Shown: piece after piece, positions 2 to 7,972 of the stretch
How the letters are laid out: every line of letters starts with the position of its first letter
Position numbering within the stretch: position 1 is the first letter of the stretch
Origin: an uncultured Pelagibacteraceae bacterium
GTDB lineage: Bacteria > Pseudomonadota > Alphaproteobacteria > Pelagibacterales > Pelagibacteraceae
Length of the DNA: 34,634 bases
Direction: 5' to 3'
Assembly (NCBI GenBank): GCA_902630945.1
Contig: CACOWV010000007.1
Span: forward strand, 1-34,634
Made by a program: the position numbers and the translations under genes
Notes under the pieces: generated by a model
Database searches by the model: none
Seen by the model: the letters and a program-made list of their open reading frames with translations, nothing else
What the model was told of the DNA's origin: nothing

Positions 2-205
2 ATCGGAGCTGGTTTAGCAGCTATTGCACTAGCAGGTGCTGGTGTTGGTATAGGAATAATTTTTGGAAACTATTTATCAGGAGCAATGAGAAATCCTTCA
101 GCTGCTCAAAAACAGTTTCCTAACTTGCTTTTAGGATTCGCACTTGCAGAAGCAACTGGATTATTTGGATTGGTTGTTGCGTTGATTATTCTTTTTGCAT
201 TTTAG
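2..205 (+). CDS. atpE: ATP synthase F0 subunit c (3' part; 5' end outside window)
   Basis: The last 67 codons of the proteolipid that forms the rotating c-ring of the F0 sector in the inner membrane. Two hydrophobic helices flank a polar loop (RNPSAAQKQFPN). Helix 1 carries the Gly-rich GAGVGIG packing motif, and helix 2 carries the proton-binding carboxylate, Glu, in LAEATGLFG (codon 149-151). Reading frame 2 runs open from the window edge to TAG at 203-205. Subunit c is normally about 75 residues, so only the start is missing. The b' gene follows at once, giving the c-b'-b order typical of alphaproteobacterial F0 operons; atpB is expected just upstream. Identification is secure. Confidence 0.95.
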   Translation: MGAGLAAIALAGAGVGIGIIFGNYLSGAMRNPSAAQKQFPNLLLGFALAEATGLFGLVVALIILFAF

Positions 206-209
206 ATTG

Positions 210-800
210 ATGATTAAAAAAATATTTTTTCAGTCAATATTTTTTAATTTTCTTTTTTTAAAGGAAATTTTTGCAGCTGAAAGTGGAGGTATGCCTCAAT
301 TAGATCCTGAGTTTTGGGTTTCCCAAATATTCTGGCTTACATTAACTTTTGGTGTTTTGTATATTGTTTTAACAAAACTTATACTTCCGAAAATAAGCAC
401 GAATTTGGAATTAAGAAAATCCCAAATACAAGAAAATATTGAGGCTGCAGATAAACAAAGAAAAGATAGCGTAAAAAAACTTAAAGAATATGATGACATT
501 GTCTTGAAGAGTAAGTTGGAGGCAAAAAATATTTTTCAGACAGCAAGAGAGAAAGCTCTTAAAGATATCAATTCAAAAAAAGAAATTTTAGAAAAACAAA
601 TTGATGATGAGATAAAAAAGGCCGAGGAAGAGATCAACATTCTTAAAAAAACTGCACCTGAAAAAATCAATAGGATTGCAATCGATACATCTTCAGAAAT
701 ACTAAAAAGCTTAATTGGAGCAGAAGTTAATAACAGTAGTATTTCAGCAATAGTTGACGATCTGTCAAAAAAAAACGTAAATAAATATTATGATAATTGA
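210..800 (+). CDS. atpF': ATP synthase F0 subunit b' (peripheral stalk)
   Basis: One of the two different stator b subunits found in alphaproteobacteria and phototrophs. It pairs with subunit b to hold F1 against the rotor. The protein has a hydrophobic N-terminus, the b'-typical stretch MPQLDPEFW, one membrane helix (about residues 33-55) and a long charged, Lys/Glu-rich coiled coil to the end (196 residues from this start). I chose ATG at 210, which follows the atpE stop; TTG at 195 or 207 in the same frame would lengthen it slightly and overlap atpE. There is no visible Shine-Dalgarno sequence. The 3' end overlaps the start of subunit b by 11 bases, so the two are probably translated together. 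Confidence 0.92.
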   Translation: MIKKIFFQSIFFNFLFLKEIFAAESGGMPQLDPEFWVSQIFWLTLTFGVLYIVLTKLILPKISTNLELRKSQIQENIEAADKQRKDSVKKLKEYDDIVLKSKLEAKNIFQTAREKALKDINSKKEILEKQIDDEIKKAEEEINILKKTAPEKINRIAIDTSSEILKSLIGAEVNNSSISAIVDDLSKKNVNKYYDN

Positions 801-1287
801 TTCAACATTTTGGGTAGCAGTTTCATTTTTTTTGTTTTTTGGGGGGCTCGTATATCTAAAAGTGCCTCAAAAAATAAATGAAATACTAAACAAACTTATT
901 TTAGATATTAAAAATGAAATAGATGAAAGTGAAAAATTAAGAATGGAAGCAAAGGTATTGCTTGAAGATGCTCAAAAAAAACTTGATACTGCTCAATCAG
1001 TAAGTAATGAAATTTTAGAGCAGGCTAAAAAAGATAGCGATAGATTAATTATTGACTTAAATGATAAATTTCATAAATCATCTGAAATCAAGAAAAATTC
1101 AGCTGAAAATAAGATCTCTCAAATGAAGGATACTGTTATAAAAGAAATCCAAAATGTATCAGTTAAGATTGCAATAGATTCTGTCAAAAAAATCATAACG
1201 ACATCCGTTGATAAATCTAAATTAGATGCACTCTTTCAAAAAAATTTAGAGGAAAGTAAAGAGGAGTTAAAAAAAATTAACTTATAA
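790..1287 (+). CDS. atpF: ATP synthase F0 subunit b (peripheral stalk)
   Basis: The second stator b subunit. A short N-terminus leads into a single membrane helix (about residues 5-24, WVAVSFFLFFGGLVYLKVP), followed by a charged coiled coil rich in Lys, Glu, Asp and Ala through residue 165. This is the usual architecture and length of bacterial subunit b. Its ATG lies inside the end of atpF' in another frame. Only 39 bases separate its stop from the phytoene desaturase gene on the same strand. I see no convincing terminator there, only an A/T-rich run, so read-through into the carotenoid genes is possible. Confidence 0.92.
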   Translation: MIIDSTFWVAVSFFLFFGGLVYLKVPQKINEILNKLILDIKNEIDESEKLRMEAKVLLEDAQKKLDTAQSVSNEILEQAKKDSDRLIIDLNDKFHKSSEIKKNSAENKISQMKDTVIKEIQNVSVKIAIDSVKKIITTSVDKSKLDALFQKNLEESKEELKKINL

Positions 1288-1326
1288 TCCTCTTACAATT
1301 TTTTTAAAAAACTATAAATTAATATA

Positions 1327-2787
1327 ATGAATTCTGTTGTAATTGGCTCTGGATTTGGAGGAATAGCTGCCGCGCTTCGTCTCAAAGCAAAAGGGCATAA
1401 TGTTACATTAATTGAGAAACATCAAGATTTGGGTGGGAGAGCGAGAGTGTTTAAAAAGAATGGTTTTATTTATGATGGCGGGCCAACAGTAATTACTGCT
1501 CCCTATTTAATTAATGAGTTATTCGAATTATTTAAAAAAGATCCAAAAGATTATATAGAACTTTTTCCCCTTAAAATTTGGTACCAATTTTTATTTGAAG
1601 ATAAAACTAAATTTAATTACTCAGGGGATGAAAATGAGATGAAAAGCCAAATTGAGAAAATAAGTAAAGATGATGTTAAGGGCTATGAAAAATTGGTCAA
1701 TTTTACAAAAAAAATATTTGATAAAGGATTTACGGAACTTGCGGATGTTCCATTTGATAGACCCTTTGTAATGATGCAACAATTACCAGCTCTTTTAAAA
1801 CTTAAAAGTTACAAATCAGTTTATTCATTGGTTTCATCCTATATAAAAAATGAAAAATTAAGAAGAATGTTAAGTATGCACCCTCTCTTGGTTGGTGGAA
1901 ATCCATTTACGACTACTTCTATTTATGGACTTATTTTATATTTAGAAAAAAAATGGGGAATTCATTATTCGATGGGGGGAACTGGAAACATAATAAAAGG
2001 TTTTGAAAAATTGATGAATGAAGAAGGAATTAATGTAATCAAAGGTAATGAGGTCACAAAAATTATTTTGGATAAAAAAAGAATTACTGGTGTTCAGCTT
2101 AATGATCAAACTATTATAAATTCTAATAATGTTATTTGTAATGCAGACCCACCTGCAGTTTATGAAAAAATGATAAATGGAGATACAAATAATTCATTTC
2201 TTTTTAAATGGAAAAAAAATCGAATGGAATATTCAATGGGATTATTTGTCTATTATTTTGGTACCAAAAAAAAATATGAAAACGTAGAACACCACACAAT
2301 AAAATTTGGAAATAAATATAAAGAACATCTGGACGATATATTTAATAAAAAAAAATTGAATAATGATATTAGTTATTATCTTCATCGTCCATCTGCGACA
2401 GATAAATCTATGGCTCCCACAGGAAAAGATTGTTTTTATGTTTTAGTTCCAGTTCCAAATAATCAGTCGAAAATTGATTGGTCAATCGAGGGTGAAAAAA
2501 TGAAAAAATTGGTGATTGATAAAATGGAGAAGGATCTAATGCCAGATTTAAAAGTAAATATCGTTGAAGATTTTTACCTAACACCAGATTACTTTGAAAA
2601 TGATTTAAATACTAAATACGGCTCTGGTTTTTCAATTCAGCCAAAATTTTCTCAGTCAGCTTATTTTAGATTTCATAACAAATCTGAAATTTATGATGGT
2701 CTTTATTTTGTAGGAGCAGGAACTCACCCTGGAGCAGGTGTACCAGGAGTGCTTTCGTCAGCAAAAGTATTAGATAAAATTTTATAA
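1327..2787 (+). CDS. crtI: Phytoene desaturase (lycopene-forming, CrtI type)
   Basis: FAD-dependent desaturase that converts phytoene to lycopene by successive desaturations at the membrane. The N-terminus has the dinucleotide-binding fold GSGFGG (residues 7-12), followed by the acidic strand end (IEK, E30) and GGRAR (36-40). The C-terminus has the family signature GLYFVGAGTHPGAGVPGV, which completes the FAD site. Its 486 residues match the CrtI family. It opens a run crtI-crtB-crtY-blh; the stop and the crtB start share one base (TAATG). No Shine-Dalgarno sequence is visible before the ATG. Related amine-oxidase-fold desaturases exist, but the crtB and crtY neighbours make this assignment firm. 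Confidence 0.95.
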   Translation: MNSVVIGSGFGGIAAALRLKAKGHNVTLIEKHQDLGGRARVFKKNGFIYDGGPTVITAPYLINELFELFKKDPKDYIELFPLKIWYQFLFEDKTKFNYSGDENEMKSQIEKISKDDVKGYEKLVNFTKKIFDKGFTELADVPFDRPFVMMQQLPALLKLKSYKSVYSLVSSYIKNEKLRRMLSMHPLLVGGNPFTTTSIYGLILYLEKKWGIHYSMGGTGNIIKGFEKLMNEEGINVIKGNEVTKIILDKKRITGVQLNDQTIINSNNVICNADPPAVYEKMINGDTNNSFLFKWKKNRMEYSMGLFVYYFGTKKKYENVEHHTIKFGNKYKEHLDDIFNKKKLNNDISYYLHRPSATDKSMAPTGKDCFYVLVPVPNNQSKIDWSIEGEKMKKLVIDKMEKDLMPDLKVNIVEDFYLTPDYFENDLNTKYGSGFSIQPKFSQSAYFRFHNKSEIYDGLYFVGAGTHPGAGVPGVLSSAKVLDKIL

Positions 2788-3638
2788 TGTCTAATAAAAG
2801 CAACTTGTCAATTTATGCTAAGTCATTTAGTTGGGCTGGTTTTTTTTTACCCAAAGAAACATATAAAAAATGTTCATCTTTATACGATTTTTGTAGAGTA
2901 GCAGATAATATTGCAGATGATAATGAGGGAATAGAAAAAAAAGAAAAAAAATTTGATGAATTTGAAAATGATTTTAATCGAAGAAACTTTAATAATTCAA
3001 TTATTAAAGACATGTGGAGTCTAATTGATGAATTCAATATATCTTTAAAAGTCGTTGAAGATTTATTAACTGGAATAAAATCAGATATTAAAAATGAGGT
3101 TAAGTTAAATTCAAAAAAAGATTTATTGATTTACTCATACAGAGTAGCTGGAACTGTTGGGTTAATGATGGCAAAAATTTTAAGAGTTAGCAAGAAAAGT
3201 TCACTTAAATCAGCTATCGATCTTGGAATTGCAATGCAACTTACAAATATATCAAGAGATGTTATTGAAGACTCTGGGAATAATCGTTTTTATATAAATA
3301 AAAATTTTAAAGATATTTCATCGACCATTAATCTTGCAGAAACTTTTTATGAAAATTCATTTTATTCAATTAAGGATATACCCTTAAGTTTTCGTTTTTC
3401 AATTCTCGTTGCTAGAAGAGTTTACAGGAAAATAGGACATAAGATACTAAACACAAAAAATTTGGAAAATTATCAAAATTCGGGGAAAATATATGTTTCA
3501 AAATTAGAAAAAATATTTGAGACTTTTCTTTCAATTTTTGACTTAATTAAACTATCATTTAAAAATGAAAAATATGATCAAGTTCAACATGATCATAATT
3601 TAATTAATGAAGAAATAAATTTAGATGAAAGAATTTGA
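2787..3638 (+). CDS. crtB: Phytoene synthase
   Basis: Condenses two geranylgeranyl diphosphates head to head into phytoene, the first committed carotenoid step. It belongs to the squalene/phytoene synthase family. The first Asp-rich Mg-binding motif is at about 33-45 (YDFCRVADNIADD) and the second in DLGIAMQLTNISRDVIED. Its 283 residues are normal for the family. The start overlaps the crtI stop by one base, and the end overlaps crtY by 14 bases, so coupled translation is likely. The substrate-making GGPP synthase (crtE) is not in the window and must be supplied from elsewhere. Confidence 0.95.
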   Translation: MSNKSNLSIYAKSFSWAGFFLPKETYKKCSSLYDFCRVADNIADDNEGIEKKEKKFDEFENDFNRRNFNNSIIKDMWSLIDEFNISLKVVEDLLTGIKSDIKNEVKLNSKKDLLIYSYRVAGTVGLMMAKILRVSKKSSLKSAIDLGIAMQLTNISRDVIEDSGNNRFYINKNFKDISSTINLAETFYENSFYSIKDIPLSFRFSILVARRVYRKIGHKILNTKNLENYQNSGKIYVSKLEKIFETFLSIFDLIKLSFKNEKYDQVQHDHNLINEEINLDERI

Positions 3639-4692
3639 CTATATAATTATTGGTGGTGGCTGTGCGGGACTATCACTAGCTTACGAACTTGAAATTAATG
3701 ATAAATTAAAAGCTAAAACTCTAGCTATCATTGAGCCAAGAGCGGAATATAAAAGAGATAAAACTTGGTCCTTTTGGAAAGTGATGTCTCATAACTTTGA
3801 TGACTGTGTGATGAAAAGTTGGAAAAATTTTACAATTAATATAACAAAAAAGACTAATCATTTAGAATGTCAGAGTTATCCATACCAAAGTATTGATAGT
3901 GGTTTATTTTATGAAAAAATTATCAATAGTTTAAAAAAAAATAAAAATATTTCGTTCTTTAAAGATATTAGTGAAATCAATCCAAAGAATTCTTTCATTT
4001 TTAATAGTGTTCCATCTATTAAAAAAAATTATCTCAACCTTTGGCAACATTTTTGTGGGGTTGAGATTGAAACTCAAAAAGATTTTTTTGACGATGAAAT
4101 TTTTAATCTTATGGATTTTGACTGCGATCAAAGAGAAAGTGTTCATTTTTTTTATACTCTTCCCTACACAAAAACTAAAGCTTTAATTGAAACAACTTGG
4201 TTATCAAAAATGAATGATAACTCTCAAAAAGATTATGACAATCAAATAAAGGATTATTTGGAAAATCATTTAAAATTAAAAGATTACAAAATAACATATA
4301 AAGAACAAGGTGCGATACCCCTATTCTATCCAACATATGAGGATACGAAAAATAAAATAAACATTGGAACTGCGGGGGGCATGACCAGATTAAGCACTGG
4401 TTATACTTTTTTAAATATTCAAGAACATAGTAAATATATTTGTAAAAATATAGAAAACATTTCAAAAGTTAAAAAATTTGAAATTAGTAAAAAATATCAA
4501 TTTTTAGATGATATTTTTTTAAGAGTTTTAAATGAAAACCCTAAAATAATGCCTGTTATATTCTTTAAAATGTTTAAGAGCTCACCAAAGACTGTTATAA
4601 AATTTTTGTCTAACAAAAGTAATTTTTTAGAGGATTTATCAATTATTTTGAAAATGCCTAAATGGACTTTCGTTAAAGCTTTATTCAGATAA
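3625..4692 (+). CDS. crtY: Lycopene beta-cyclase (CrtY type)
   Basis: Closes both ends of lycopene into beta-ionone rings, giving beta-carotene. The flavoprotein fold starts with IIIGGGCAGLSLAYELE (GGGCAG at 10-15). It is followed by the CrtY-typical stretch DKTWSFW (about 50-56) and, late in the protein, the GGMTRLSTGYTF block seen in bacterial cyclases. Its length of 355 residues is close to the usual 380-390. It overlaps crtB at its start and ends one base before blh. Context between crtB and blh supports cyclisation to beta-carotene as the substrate for retinal formation. Confidence 0.92.
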   Translation: MKEFDYIIIGGGCAGLSLAYELEINDKLKAKTLAIIEPRAEYKRDKTWSFWKVMSHNFDDCVMKSWKNFTINITKKTNHLECQSYPYQSIDSGLFYEKIINSLKKNKNISFFKDISEINPKNSFIFNSVPSIKKNYLNLWQHFCGVEIETQKDFFDDEIFNLMDFDCDQRESVHFFYTLPYTKTKALIETTWLSKMNDNSQKDYDNQIKDYLENHLKLKDYKITYKEQGAIPLFYPTYEDTKNKINIGTAGGMTRLSTGYTFLNIQEHSKYICKNIENISKVKKFEISKKYQFLDDIFLRVLNENPKIMPVIFFKMFKSSPKTVIKFLSNKSNFLEDLSIILKMPKWTFVKALFR

Positions 4693-4693
4693 A

Positions 4694-5644
4694 ATGAAAA
4701 TATTAGACAAACACACAATAGCAACTCAGTTAATAAGTTTAGTTATTGGATTATTGATATACGTTTCATTTAGCGTTGTAGAAGCAAATAATTTTACGAA
4801 TTTGATATGTTTTTTTTTAATTATTACTTTTGGTATTAGTCACGGTGCACTAGATAATTTTAAAGGGAAAAAATTAATAAATTATTTTGGTTATAAAAAT
4901 ATTATAATCTTTTATTTGTCATACATTTTAATTTCATTATTTGTAATTTTATTATGGATAATTTTTCCAACTATAACATTAAGTATTTTTTTACTTGTTG
5001 CTTGTTATCACTTTGGGAAAGAAGACACAGCTTTTTTATTGGAGAAAGAAAAGTTTTTTGAGTCTATTGGAGTAAATAGTTTTATTTATTTTTCAAAAGG
5101 ACTTTTAATAATAGTTGCTCCTCTTTATTTTCATAATGAAGAAACTTTATCTATTTTTAAATTACTTGGTGCGGACAGCTTATTTCTAATTAGGTTTCAA
5201 AATGATTTAATGTGGGAATATCATAAAATTTTAGGGTGGATTTCATTTATTGGTTATATTGTTTTTCTGTTTATAAACTTTAAAGATGGAGGTTACGAAG
5301 CAGCACACTGTTTTGATTTTATACCAATTATAATCCTTAATGCAGTGCTAACACCTTTGTTAGCATTTACAGTGTATTTTTGTTTTATTCATTCTTTTAA
5401 GCATTCTGTTTCCCTTATATATCTTTTAGATAATAAAAACTTTAATAATGGAATTAAAAAATTTTTAAGAAAAGCCTTACCTTTAACTTTGGTCACAGCA
5501 GTATTATTCATCTTAAGTGTTTTTGTTCTTACAAATTACTATGTTTTAAATGATGCTATTTTAAAGGTGATATTTATAGGTTTGGCGTCTTTAACTTTTC
5601 CGCATATATTGCTCGAATATTTAATAGAAAAAAATGAAAAATAA
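4694..5644 (+). CDS. blh: Beta-carotene 15,15'-dioxygenase, Brp/Blh family (retinal-forming)
   Basis: Integral-membrane oxygenase that splits beta-carotene into two retinals, the chromophore of microbial rhodopsins. Several hydrophobic helices carry the conserved His sites expected to hold the iron: SHGALDN, CYHFGKEDT, FIHSFKHS and FPHILLEY near the C-terminus. The length of 316 residues suits the Brp/Blh family. It follows crtY after one base and overlaps ispH by 11 bases, making the cassette continuous with the isoprenoid gene. Its presence strongly implies a proteorhodopsin-type protein in the same genome, although none is encoded here. Confidence 0.93.
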   Translation: MKILDKHTIATQLISLVIGLLIYVSFSVVEANNFTNLICFFLIITFGISHGALDNFKGKKLINYFGYKNIIIFYLSYILISLFVILLWIIFPTITLSIFLLVACYHFGKEDTAFLLEKEKFFESIGVNSFIYFSKGLLIIVAPLYFHNEETLSIFKLLGADSLFLIRFQNDLMWEYHKILGWISFIGYIVFLFINFKDGGYEAAHCFDFIPIIILNAVLTPLLAFTVYFCFIHSFKHSVSLIYLLDNKNFNNGIKKFLRKALPLTLVTAVLFILSVFVLTNYYVLNDAILKVIFIGLASLTFPHILLEYLIEKNEK

Positions 5645-6578
5645 AGAAATTAAAATTTTACTTTCTGCACCTAGAGGTTTTTGTGCTGGTGTTGAGAGAG
5701 CAATTGAAATTGTGGAGAAAGCTCTTCATAAATATGGTGCTCCAGTCTATGTGCGGCATGAAATAGTACATAATAAATTTGTTGTTGATGACCTTAAAAA
5801 AAAAGGTGCAATTTTTGTTGAAGAGTTAGAAGAGATAGATGATAAAACAAGACCAGTAATTTTTTCTGCTCATGGAGTTCCAAAAAAAATTCCTTCAGAC
5901 GCTGAAAGTTATAAAATGACATATGTTGATGCAACTTGCCCACTTGTATCAAAAGTTCATCGGGAAGCTGAAAATCTCTATAAATCAGGATACCATCTAA
6001 TATTGATAGGTCATCAAAACCATCCTGAGGTAATTGGTACAATGGGGCAGCTACCAAAAGGATCAATTGACCTTATTCAAAATGAGGAGGAAGCAGAAAA
6101 TTACAATTTTATAAAAAATAAAAATTTAGCTTTTGTTACCCAAACAACATTATCTATAGATGATACAAAAGATATAATAAACATTTTAAAAAAAAGGTTT
6201 CCAAAAATTAGAGAGCCTCATAAAGAAGATATTTGTTATGCAACAACAAATAGACAAATGGCTGTAAAAAATATTGCAAAAAATTGTGATTTATTTTTTG
6301 TAATCGGAAGTAGAAATTCCTCTAATTCAGTTAGATTAGTTGAGGTAGCAAAAAAATCTGGATGTGCTAATGCAATATTAATTCACTCTCAAAGTAAAAT
6401 ACCGTATGACTTAATTGAAAATTCTGACACAATTGGGATCTCTTCAGGAGCATCTGCACCTGAAATATTAGTTGAAAATTTCATAAAAAGTTTGAAAAAA
6501 AAATTTACAGTTTCTATAGATGAAGTCGAAATTATCAAAGAAAACGTATTTTTTAAAGTTCCAAAAAAATTAAATTAA
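5634..6578 (+). CDS. ispH: 4-Hydroxy-3-methylbut-2-enyl diphosphate reductase
   Basis: Last enzyme of the MEP pathway; it reduces HMBPP to IPP and DMAPP using a [4Fe-4S] cluster. The three cluster cysteines are visible at C17 (PRGFCAGV), C102 (DATCPLV) and C201 (DICYATTNRQ). Substrate-binding residues also appear: HEIVHN (42-47) and GHQNHPE (126-132). The 314 residues are normal. It overlaps the blh end by 11 bases, and thrB begins at the very next base after its stop. In many alphaproteobacteria ispH, thrB and rnhA are neighbours, so this trio is ancestral and the carotenoid genes are the variable part. Confidence 0.97.
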   Translation: MKNKEIKILLSAPRGFCAGVERAIEIVEKALHKYGAPVYVRHEIVHNKFVVDDLKKKGAIFVEELEEIDDKTRPVIFSAHGVPKKIPSDAESYKMTYVDATCPLVSKVHREAENLYKSGYHLILIGHQNHPEVIGTMGQLPKGSIDLIQNEEEAENYNFIKNKNLAFVTQTTLSIDDTKDIINILKKRFPKIREPHKEDICYATTNRQMAVKNIAKNCDLFFVIGSRNSSNSVRLVEVAKKSGCANAILIHSQSKIPYDLIENSDTIGISSGASAPEILVENFIKSLKKKFTVSIDEVEIIKENVFFKVPKKLN

Positions 6579-7544
6579 ATGGCTGTTTACACTAAAATAA
6601 GTAAAAGAGATATTTACTTTATAAATAAAAACTTCAGTATAGAAAATTTTGATAATTTTGAAGGTATCAAACAAGGAATTGAAAATACAAACTATTTATT
6701 AAAATCAAAAAATAAAAAATTTATTCTCACAATTTTTGAAAAAAGAGTCCTTAAAAAAGAAATTCCTTTTTTTATGAAATTAATGGATCAATTAAGTAAT
6801 CTAAACATAAACTGTCCCAAGCCTCTAAAAAATCGTCAAGGAAATTTTATTATTAAATTAAAAGATAAATCAGCATGTATAGTTACCTTTTTGAGTGGAA
6901 GAGATAAAAAAAATCTTAATTGCAAAAATTGTTTTGATGTTGGTAAGATGGTAGCTCAAATGCACCTATCAGCAAAAAATATAAAACTTTATAGAAAAAA
7001 TTCAATGGGTATCAACAATCTTCAACCATTACTGGATAGTATTAAATTTAAGTCAAAAAAATTCACTAATATAGAAAAATTTTTAAAAATTAATTTTCAA
7101 GATATTAAAAAAAAATGGCCAAAGAAATTACCCAGTGGAATAATTCATGGAGATTTATTTATAGATAATATCTTTTTTAAAAATAATAAACTATCTGGAG
7201 TAATTGATTTTTATTTTGCGGCTAATGATTATTTTATGTATGAAATTGCAATATGTGTAAATGCCCTTTGTTTCAATAAAGATAAAACAAAATTTAGTAT
7301 AAACAAAAAAAAAGTTAAAAATTTAATTAAAGGTTATGAAAGTATTAAAAAAATTTCACAAAGAGAAAAAAAATCATTAAATATTTTATGTCGTGGGGCT
7401 GCAATGAGGTATTTTCTTACTAGACTATATGACTATACAAACACTCCTAAAACAGCATTAATTAAGATCAAAGATCCTAGAGAATATTATCAAAAATTAG
7501 TAATACATAATAATTTAAAAACTTATAAAGATTATTTAAATTAA
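6579..7544 (+). CDS. thrB: Homoserine kinase (aminoglycoside-phosphotransferase fold type)
   Basis: Phosphorylates L-homoserine to O-phosphohomoserine, the substrate of threonine synthase. It is the kinase type common in proteobacteria, related to aminoglycoside phosphotransferases rather than the GHMP family. The catalytic loop is IIHGDLFIDN (H190, D192, N197) and the metal-binding Asp is in GVIDF (D210). The 321 residues match the family. The ATG directly follows the ispH stop with no gap, and the stop shares a base with the rnhA start (TAATG). Its pathway partner thrC lies about 1 kb away on the opposite strand. Confidence 0.93.
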   Translation: MAVYTKISKRDIYFINKNFSIENFDNFEGIKQGIENTNYLLKSKNKKFILTIFEKRVLKKEIPFFMKLMDQLSNLNINCPKPLKNRQGNFIIKLKDKSACIVTFLSGRDKKNLNCKNCFDVGKMVAQMHLSAKNIKLYRKNSMGINNLQPLLDSIKFKSKKFTNIEKFLKINFQDIKKKWPKKLPSGIIHGDLFIDNIFFKNNKLSGVIDFYFAANDYFMYEIAICVNALCFNKDKTKFSINKKKVKNLIKGYESIKKISQREKKSLNILCRGAAMRYFLTRLYDYTNTPKTALIKIKDPREYYQKLVIHNNLKTYKDYLN

Positions 7545-7972
7545 TGATCAAGATATATACTGACGGTTCATGTATTGGAAATCCAGGCACTGGTGGATGG
7601 GCAGCAATAATATTAAATGATGGAAAAAAAACTGAAATAAAAGGCAGTGAAAAAGATACTACAAATAATCAAATGGAGTTATTAGCACCAATAAAAGCTC
7701 TTAAGGAAATTCCTAAAGGCAGCAAAGTTGAAATTTTTACAGACTCTAAATATGTAAAATCTGGAATAACAGAATGGATACGTAACTGGAAAAAAAATGG
7801 ATGGAAAACTGCAAATAAACAAAAAGTTAAAAATATAGAACTTTGGACAGAATTAGATCTGCTAAATAGTGAATATGAAATTAGTTGGAATTGGGTAAAA
7901 GCTCACTCAACTGATAAATTAAATAATGAAGTGGATTTACTCGCTAGAGATGCTGCTAACTTAATATTATAG
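7544..7972 (+). CDS. rnhA: Ribonuclease HI
   Basis: Cuts the RNA strand of RNA/DNA hybrids, removing R-loops and primer remnants. All four catalytic carboxylates are present: D7 (IYTDGSC), E45 (NNQMELLA), D67 (FTDSKY) and D131 (EVDLLARDAA), plus the catalytic-loop His in KAHSTD (H121). At 142 residues it is slightly shorter than the E. coli enzyme. It is the last gene of this plus-strand run. Its final bases overlap the stop region of the convergent peroxiredoxin gene by six, leaving no room for a separate terminator. Confidence 0.97.
   Translation: MIKIYTDGSCIGNPGTGGWAAIILNDGKKTEIKGSEKDTTNNQMELLAPIKALKEIPKGSKVEIFTDSKYVKSGITEWIRNWKKNGWKTANKQKVKNIELWTELDLLNSEYEISWNWVKAHSTDKLNNEVDLLARDAANLIL

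What the first reader, a model, noticed from the sequence alone, without database searches (positions are those of the whole stretch)
790..6578. Retinal-synthesis cassette lodged between ATP synthase F0 genes and ispH
crtI-crtB-crtY-blh runs in the same direction directly after atpF (39-base gap, no clear terminator) and overlaps ispH. It thus joins three parts of one possible light-energy route: IPP/DMAPP supply, retinal synthesis, and the proton-driven ATP synthase. Neither crtE nor a rhodopsin gene is present, so the retinal must serve an opsin encoded elsewhere. Co-location could allow co-expression, or it may only mark an insertion point between two conserved blocks.
Basis: partly seen in the sequence, partly recalled or inferred. 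Interest (0 to 1): 0.6.

Follow-up and report, generated by a model that had tools for sequence, protein, structure and literature searches.

The report
SAR11 retinal genes at fixed locus
In the ocean's most abundant bacteria, the four genes that make the light-absorbing pigment retinal sit at one fixed spot between the ATP-synthase genes and a pigment-precursor gene, and in this genome the last of the four has apparently been swapped in place for a very different version shared with a distant cousin.

Summary
In detail: atpB'-atpF-crtI-crtB-crtY-blh-ispH-thrB-rnhA, all on +, 39-base gap atpF/crtI, 11-base overlap blh/ispH. The organism is SAR11 (Pelagibacteraceae). The site is an old fixed locus: the order recurs in 80 of 80 named SAR11 loci and in 19 of 19 loci from four genera, as far as contigs reach. 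One congener, G030, lacks the cassette; ispH there follows an equally long, similar spacer. Three members of another family of the order have atpF next to thrB and no cassette.

Two points beyond the finding. (1) In this genus the atpF-crtI spacer holds conserved promoter-like boxes (27 of 28 spacers), so crtI may have its own transcription start; many other SAR11 loci have short spacers without boxes. (2) The window's blh is probably a replaced allele: median 51% identity to 18 close relatives whose 13 other compared genes have medians of 76-98%, but 95% in a distant SAR11 cell, AG-439-C18.

No rhodopsin was found in this 69%-complete assembly; 28 of 36 genus relatives have one. Retinal for proteorhodopsin is the ordinary role. 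Co-transcription with atp genes is untested.

The parts
195..800 (+). atpB' (F0 subunit b'); left block; start codon uncertain
   Evidence: Pfam ATP-synt_B 57 bits; conserved neighbour
790..1287 (+). atpF (F0 subunit b); left block
   Evidence: Pfam ATP-synt_B 63 bits
1288..1326 (+). atpF-crtI spacer with promoter-like boxes: CTTAC at 1292-1296 and CTATAAATTA at 1312-1321; box TATAAA ends 8 nt before the crtI ATG
   Evidence: sequence, positions; boxes in 27 of 28 known-genus spacers, 60 of 63 spacers of 33 nt or more, 22 of 1203 background ATGs
1327..2787 (+). crtI, phytoene desaturase
   Evidence: TIGR02734 513 bits, cut-off 238
2787..3638 (+). crtB, phytoene synthase (C-terminal part, after about residue 174, matches no profile)
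   Evidence: Pfam SQS_PSY 126 bits over residues 11-170
3625..4692 (+). crtY, lycopene cyclase
   Evidence: Pfam Lycopene_cycl 145 bits
4694..5644 (+). blh, beta-carotene 15,15'-dioxygenase; divergent allele
   Evidence: TIGR03753 193 bits, cut-off 95; median 51% to 18 flank relatives, 95% to L076
4590..5590 (.). approximate extent of the replaced segment against the nearest relatives (resolution about 100-200 nt)
   Evidence: nucleotide identity to the best of four relatives 54-79% here, 80-90% over most of the rest of the 790-7544 stretch, lowest elsewhere 74%
5634..6578 (+). ispH, HMBPP reductase; right block
   Evidence: TIGR00216 325 bits
6579..7544 (+). thrB, homoserine kinase; right block
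   Evidence: TIGR00938 303 bits
7544..7972 (+). rnhA, ribonuclease H; right block
   Evidence: Pfam RNase_H 157 bits

Best explanation
This is the SAR11 retinal-synthesis cassette at its family-wide home, between the F0 ATP-synthase genes and the ispH-thrB-rnhA block. CrtB joins two GGPP to phytoene, CrtI makes lycopene, CrtY makes beta-carotene and Blh cleaves it to retinal (from family knowledge). GGPP must come from a prenyl synthase elsewhere; the IspA-like gene beside dxs on contig C8 is the candidate. The retinal loads a proteorhodopsin encoded at another locus. In this genus the spacer after atpF probably carries the start point of a transcript running crtI to rnhA, since the genes overlap or nearly touch; read-through from atp is not excluded. 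The home is fixed but the alleles are not: the inner genes crtB, crtY and above all blh are replaced in place by recombination between SAR11 lineages, and the window carries a replaced blh. Shown: gene identity, synteny, allele mosaic. Inferred: enzyme activity, promoter, opsin partner, homologous recombination as the route.
For: Profiles. Order kept in 26 of 27 regions from genus relatives (exception L065, where thrB and rnhA pieces lie inverted at a contig end), 80 of 80 named SAR11 loci, 19 of 19 loci of four genera; the sets overlap in part. Boxes. G030: atpF, 39 nt, ispH. Rhodopsin in 28 of 36 genus relatives and in the genome of L076. Mosaic: window blh outlier among 14 compared genes; L076 closest to L081/L079/L112 in ispH and thrB but to the window clade from about 2590 to 5590, 90-96% against 50-84%; AU tests reject window blh with its flank relatives (p 2e-7) and window with L076 for ispH and thrB. 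blh pair window/L076 dN/dS 0.12.
Against: No rhodopsin in the own assembly. No dedicated CrtE: the C8 enzyme fits the FPP-synthase model best and falls below every cut-off. The consensus scan lists no promoter in the spacer; boxes of A and T could have another role; the pattern occurs once in the window where shuffles give 0.32 on average. Conflicts between well-supported splits do not single out the cassette: crtB, crtY, blh 0.55-0.56, but atpF 0.52, rnhA 0.50, crtI 0.41. rnhA also has many low-identity pairs (54 of 403), so in-place exchange is not confined to retinal genes. No transcript data.
Confidence: 0.8

Rival explanations
1. The cassette belongs to one atp operon: ATP-synthase and retinal genes are co-expressed from the atp promoter as a light-energy unit.
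For: Same strand, no terminator-like site in the gap. 37 of 100 SAR11 loci have spacers under 33 nt without boxes, 23 of them with an AGG/GGA/GAG motif, leaving little room for a separate promoter. In HTCC7211 an ATP synthase subunit C gene and the rhodopsin gene are both in the table of genes with most start-site reads (PMC5069720, passages).
Against: In the window's own genus the spacer has conserved boxes. Selection for the neighbourhood is not shown; G030 keeps rhodopsin and the atp-ispH neighbourhood without the cassette.
Confidence: 0.3
2. The location is historical only: the cassette landed there once in the SAR11 ancestor and stays by inertia and strong synteny conservation, without functional coupling.
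For: SAR11 genomes are highly syntenic (PMC7318151, passage). In three genomes of another family atpF is followed by thrB and ispH lies elsewhere, so the neighbourhood itself changes between families.
Against: Overlapping genes from crtI to rnhA and the spacer boxes suggest at least one shared transcript with ispH.
Confidence: 0.4
3. The divergent blh is not an exchange but an ancient allele kept by descent in a few lineages (or accelerated evolution in the window's lineage).
For: The blh tree holds many deep SAR11 types with unresolved order.
Against: The window and L076 share it at 95% while their ispH and thrB are 73% and 55%, with dS 0.19 and sharp edges: acceleration in one lineage cannot give that.
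Confidence: 0.1
4. Assembly artefact: single-cell or metagenome chimera joins foreign blh to this contig.
For: Draft assembly of 28 contigs, 68.7% complete.
Against: Reported contamination 0.01%; the reading frames and both overlaps are intact; the same allele sits in the same place in an independently named assembly, AG-439-C18.
Confidence: 0.05

Closest known systems
Marine proteorhodopsin-associated crtEIBY-blh retinal pathway
   Same: crtI, crtB, crtY and blh in one direction, same chemistry expected
   Different: no crtE and no rhodopsin gene beside it; seated between F0 atp genes and ispH
Replacement flexible genomic islands exchanged by homologous recombination, including the Ca. Pelagibacter O-chain cluster (PMC4033161, PMC2217521; passages)
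   Same: exchange in place between conserved flanks in SAR11
   Different: there gene content differs between strains; here the same four genes stay and only alleles change; segment about 1 to 3 kb
Widespread recombination among distantly related SAR11 (PMC7542561; passages)
   Same: the general process
   Different: that paper's text holds no mention of rhodopsin, carot- or retinal (word search); here one named locus with edges
Rhodopsin-bearing prokaryotes without known retinal genes (PMC7734400; passages)
   Same: G030 and most examined genomes of family f2 have rhodopsin without detectable blh
   Different: G030 is a member of a genus where most examined genomes have the cassette

Membership tests
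Brp/Blh beta-carotene 15,15'-dioxygenase | profile above curated cut-off | tested here: met
   TIGR03753 193 bits, cut-off 95.25; Pfam BCD 191.5 bits, cut-off 28
Brp/Blh beta-carotene 15,15'-dioxygenase | conserved histidines of the active site (spacing recalled from the 66A03 Blh work, not from a call) | tested here: met
   H50, H106, H233, H237, H304 invariant in 10 SAR11 sequences; the recalled pattern is His, about 57 residues, His, then two His four apart
Brp/Blh beta-carotene 15,15'-dioxygenase | multi-helix membrane fold | tested here: inconclusive
   all-helical AlphaFold2 model, mean pLDDT 76.6, pTM 0.76, 10 sequences; no fold search made; no PDB sequence match at E up to 1
Brp/Blh beta-carotene 15,15'-dioxygenase | makes retinal from beta-carotene | not testable with these tools
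   needs an assay
crtEIBY-blh proteorhodopsin retinal cassette | crtI, crtB, crtY, blh in one run | tested here: met
crtEIBY-blh proteorhodopsin retinal cassette | crtE in the cassette | tested here: not met
   none between atpF and ispH; own genome has two prenyl synthases, both on contig C8, neither above the CrtE cut-off
crtEIBY-blh proteorhodopsin retinal cassette | rhodopsin gene adjacent | tested here: not met
   no PF01036 match in the own assembly
crtEIBY-blh proteorhodopsin retinal cassette | rhodopsin in the same genome | tested here: inconclusive
   absent from a 68.7% complete assembly; present in 28 of 36 genus relatives
Replacement flexible genomic island | exchange between conserved flanks | tested here: met
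Replacement flexible genomic island | different gene content in different strains | tested here: not met
   same four genes in all loci that hold them

The most novel reading that the evidence does not exclude
The inner retinal genes are a standing allele-exchange locus: SAR11 populations share a pool of deeply different Blh (and CrtB, CrtY) alleles that are swapped into a fixed atpF-ispH home across lineages, decoupled from the host tree, and perhaps selected for matching retinal supply to the host's rhodopsin or light niche. The whole set can also be lost cleanly back to atpF-spacer-ispH while rhodopsin is kept, which would make such cells dependent on retinal from elsewhere.
Probability: 0.25. 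Interest if true: 0.65.

Novelty: new variant of a known kind. Interest (0 to 1): 0.42.

Why it matters
Rhodopsin light use by SAR11 matters for the energy budget of the surface ocean, and it depends on retinal. A fixed chromosomal home for the retinal genes makes presence or loss easy to score in any SAR11 genome, and the spacer gives a definite place to test whether retinal synthesis is expressed with the ATP synthase or on its own. The exchanged alleles mean that a blh or crtY tree should not be read as a SAR11 tree, and that blh-based surveys may mis-assign hosts. A congener with rhodopsin but no cassette raises a testable question about retinal scavenging.

Tried and rejected
Rejected: that the cassette is a private insertion. 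Rejected: a blh-free Diox1 route in relatives; PF03055 has 0 of 61 matches, while 2 of 14 control genomes rang. Rejected as a discriminating test: conflicts of well-supported splits, which are about as common for atpF and rnhA as for the cassette genes. The consensus promoter scan found 42 sites against 53 expected, none in the spacer. tRNA and Rfam scans of the window found nothing. A DNA search of the own genome with a relative's rhodopsin neighbourhood found nothing, without positive control and with 40 of 148 candidates scored. In one search atpF, ispH and thrB were used to choose the close pairs, so their zero counts below 65% say nothing; the fair comparisons there are crtI (0 of 403) and rnhA (54 of 403) against blh (55) and crtB (36) and crtY (4). 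The AU groups and the 18 relatives were named after identities had been seen. In one search the script stopped with an error after the correlation table; the neighbour lists were made again.

Literature: ten searches. In their listings and in the passages that I read I saw no statement that SAR11 retinal genes lie between atpF and ispH, nor of blh exchange. Subscription papers and supplements were not available, so it may be in print; the order would be visible in any annotated SAR11 genome.
Full report
Observation. The window is contig C7 of a genome of 766,095 bases in 28 contigs, 68.7% complete. crtB and crtY are supported by Pfam but fall below the NCBIfam equivalog cut-offs, and the part of CrtB after about residue 174 matches no profile.

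Who it is. The window's genome shares its genus code with a genome that is AG-439-C18, an uncultured Pelagibacteraceae cell.

How general the site is. Of 61 genomes (own, 36 of the genus, 24 of another family, f2), 28 have blh, all of them in the window's genus (28 of 37) and none of the 24 of f2. In the wider order 221 of 297 genomes have it, and the rows listed with a match are of the window's family. I fetched 27 regions from genus relatives: 26 keep the full order as far as the contig reaches; in L065 thrB and rnhA pieces lie inverted at a contig end. All 80 named loci keep it, 65 of them over all nine genes. All 19 loci of a further draw over four genera keep it. The sets overlap: L206 is the genome of L076, and contig lengths suggest further repeats. 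By place, 27 genus genomes including the window's have atpF and ispH on one contig; 26 have the cassette between them and one, G030, does not.

G030 and the other family. In G030 (83% complete, 100 contigs) the order is atpB'-atpF-39 nt-ispH-thrB-rnhA. It has a rhodopsin but no blh, and its only lycopene-cyclase match is a 22-bit N-terminal one, below the cut-off. As relatives with more divergent atpF (G008, G032, G035) have the cassette, loss is more likely than an ancestral empty site, but this rests on one draft genome. In f2, three loci examined have thrB after the F0 genes, and ispH lies elsewhere. A direct ancestral state for SAR11 cannot be read from this.

The spacer. In 28 spacers of known genus members (window, 25 regions, G030, G004) the length is 38 to 52 nt and 27 have a T[AG]TA[AG]A box ending 7 to 10 nt before the start codon; the exception, L061, has TATAAG. 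Over all 100 spacers measured, 60 of 63 of at least 33 nt have it and 0 of 37 shorter ones; 22 of 1203 ATGs of the window have such a box by chance or function. In aligned distinct spacers, columns of the boxes are nearly fixed while those outside vary. The distance fits a -10 box with a start at or near the ATG, that is a leader of almost no length; an upstream CTTAC lies about 16 nt before the box. This is an inference: the consensus scan lists no promoter there, related loci are not independent, and the T and A runs may have another role. Short spacers more often have an AGG-like motif (23 of 37 against 5 of 63). In genus g7 tblastn matches of atpF and crtI lie about 290 to 300 nt apart. 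So coupling to the atp genes may differ between SAR11 genera.

Gene packing. Over the measured loci crtI/crtB, crtB/crtY and crtY/blh have medians of -1, -14 and +1 nt; blh overlaps ispH in 95 of 106 loci and is 149 to 159 nt away in 11 (start codons chosen by rule). One transcript from crtI to rnhA is plausible, not shown.

The replaced blh. Of 14 window genes comparable in at least 12 of 18 chosen relatives, 13 have median identities of 76 to 98% and blh has 51%, highest 55%. With L076 it is the reverse: blh 95%, ispH 73%, thrB 55%. Along the DNA the window keeps 80 to 90% to the best of four relatives except for about 4590 to 5490, where it falls to 54-79%, with lesser dips outside (lowest 74%). 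L076 matches L081, L079 and L112 at 84-90% through ispH and nearly all of thrB, but from about 2590 to 5590 it matches the window clade at 90-96% and those three at 50-84% until the end of blh; within most of crtI the two cannot be told apart. A blh tree joins window and L076 (support 100) on a long stem among several deep SAR11 types whose order is not resolved. AU tests reject window blh with 11 flank relatives (p 2.1e-7) and window with L076 for ispH (p 3e-48) and thrB (p 6e-7). Between the two blh genes 50 of 948 bases differ, dS 0.19, dN 0.024, ratio 0.12, as in a working gene. The simplest reading is two exchanges: a foreign blh into the window's clade, and a segment from crtI's 3' part to blh from that clade into the line of L076. 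The first donor is unknown.

How common. Over 80 non-redundant loci (of 89 with all eight genes), identity of each gene was correlated with the mean of the flank genes: atpF 0.84, crtI 0.82, crtB 0.65, crtY 0.52, blh 0.37, ispH 0.86, thrB 0.86, rnhA 0.81 (resampling intervals of crtB, crtY and blh lie below those of the others). Part of this may come from the narrow spread of blh identities among far pairs. Among 403 close pairs, blh is under 65% in 55, crtB in 36, crtY in 4, crtI in 0, but rnhA in 54. Split conflicts do not single out the cassette. So exchange in place is well supported for the named cases and likely frequent for blh and crtB, but it is not unique to retinal genes.

Function. 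Rhodopsin: 50 of 61 genomes (28 of 37 in the genus, 22 of 24 in f2). The rhodopsins that I read show by eye the D, T, E pattern and the lysine of light-driven proton pumps (pattern recalled). GGPP: the own genome has two prenyl synthases, both on C8, one beside dxs; the latter scores best with the FPP-synthase model, 248 bits against a cut-off of 275, and 178 against 460 for CrtE. Which enzyme gives GGPP is open. IspH supplies IPP and DMAPP to all isoprenoids, so its place beside crt genes is suggestive only.

Known or new. The pathway and its pairing with proteorhodopsin are known (PMC5864233, PMC2889829; passages). SAR11 recombination is known (PMC7542561, passages). I saw no report of this locus or of blh exchange in ten searches, which cover open papers only. 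I rate it a new variant of a known kind with modest interest.

Noticed in passing
L165 4223-4915 (G037) and family f2: 22 of 24 f2 genomes have rhodopsin, but 0 of 24 have blh or Diox1/RPE65, and their lycopene-cyclase matches are N-terminal only, best 28.8 bits: rhodopsin without known retinal genes.
   Followed up: partly
L166 3914-4681 (G030): A congener with rhodopsin but neither blh nor a full lycopene cyclase found in an 83% complete assembly.
   Followed up: partly
window 7544-7972: rnhA also shows low identity in 54 of 403 close pairs: possibly another gene exchanged in place.
   Followed up: no
window 3300-3638: The C-terminal part of CrtB matches no Pfam or NCBIfam profile; crtB appears as two pieces in L111 and L188.
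   Followed up: no
L055, L062, L063, L067-L071, L102, L107, L152: blh and ispH are 149-159 nt apart instead of overlapping (11 of 106 loci).
   Followed up: no
L080, L079, L050: These three share a blh clade (support 100); L080 has window-like flanks (ispH 87%, thrB 82% to the window) while L050 does not (atpF about 53%): a second likely exchange.
   Followed up: partly
G000:C8 (L177 3468-6250): dxs stands beside an IspA-like synthase, the likely but unproven source of the prenyl precursor.
   Followed up: partly
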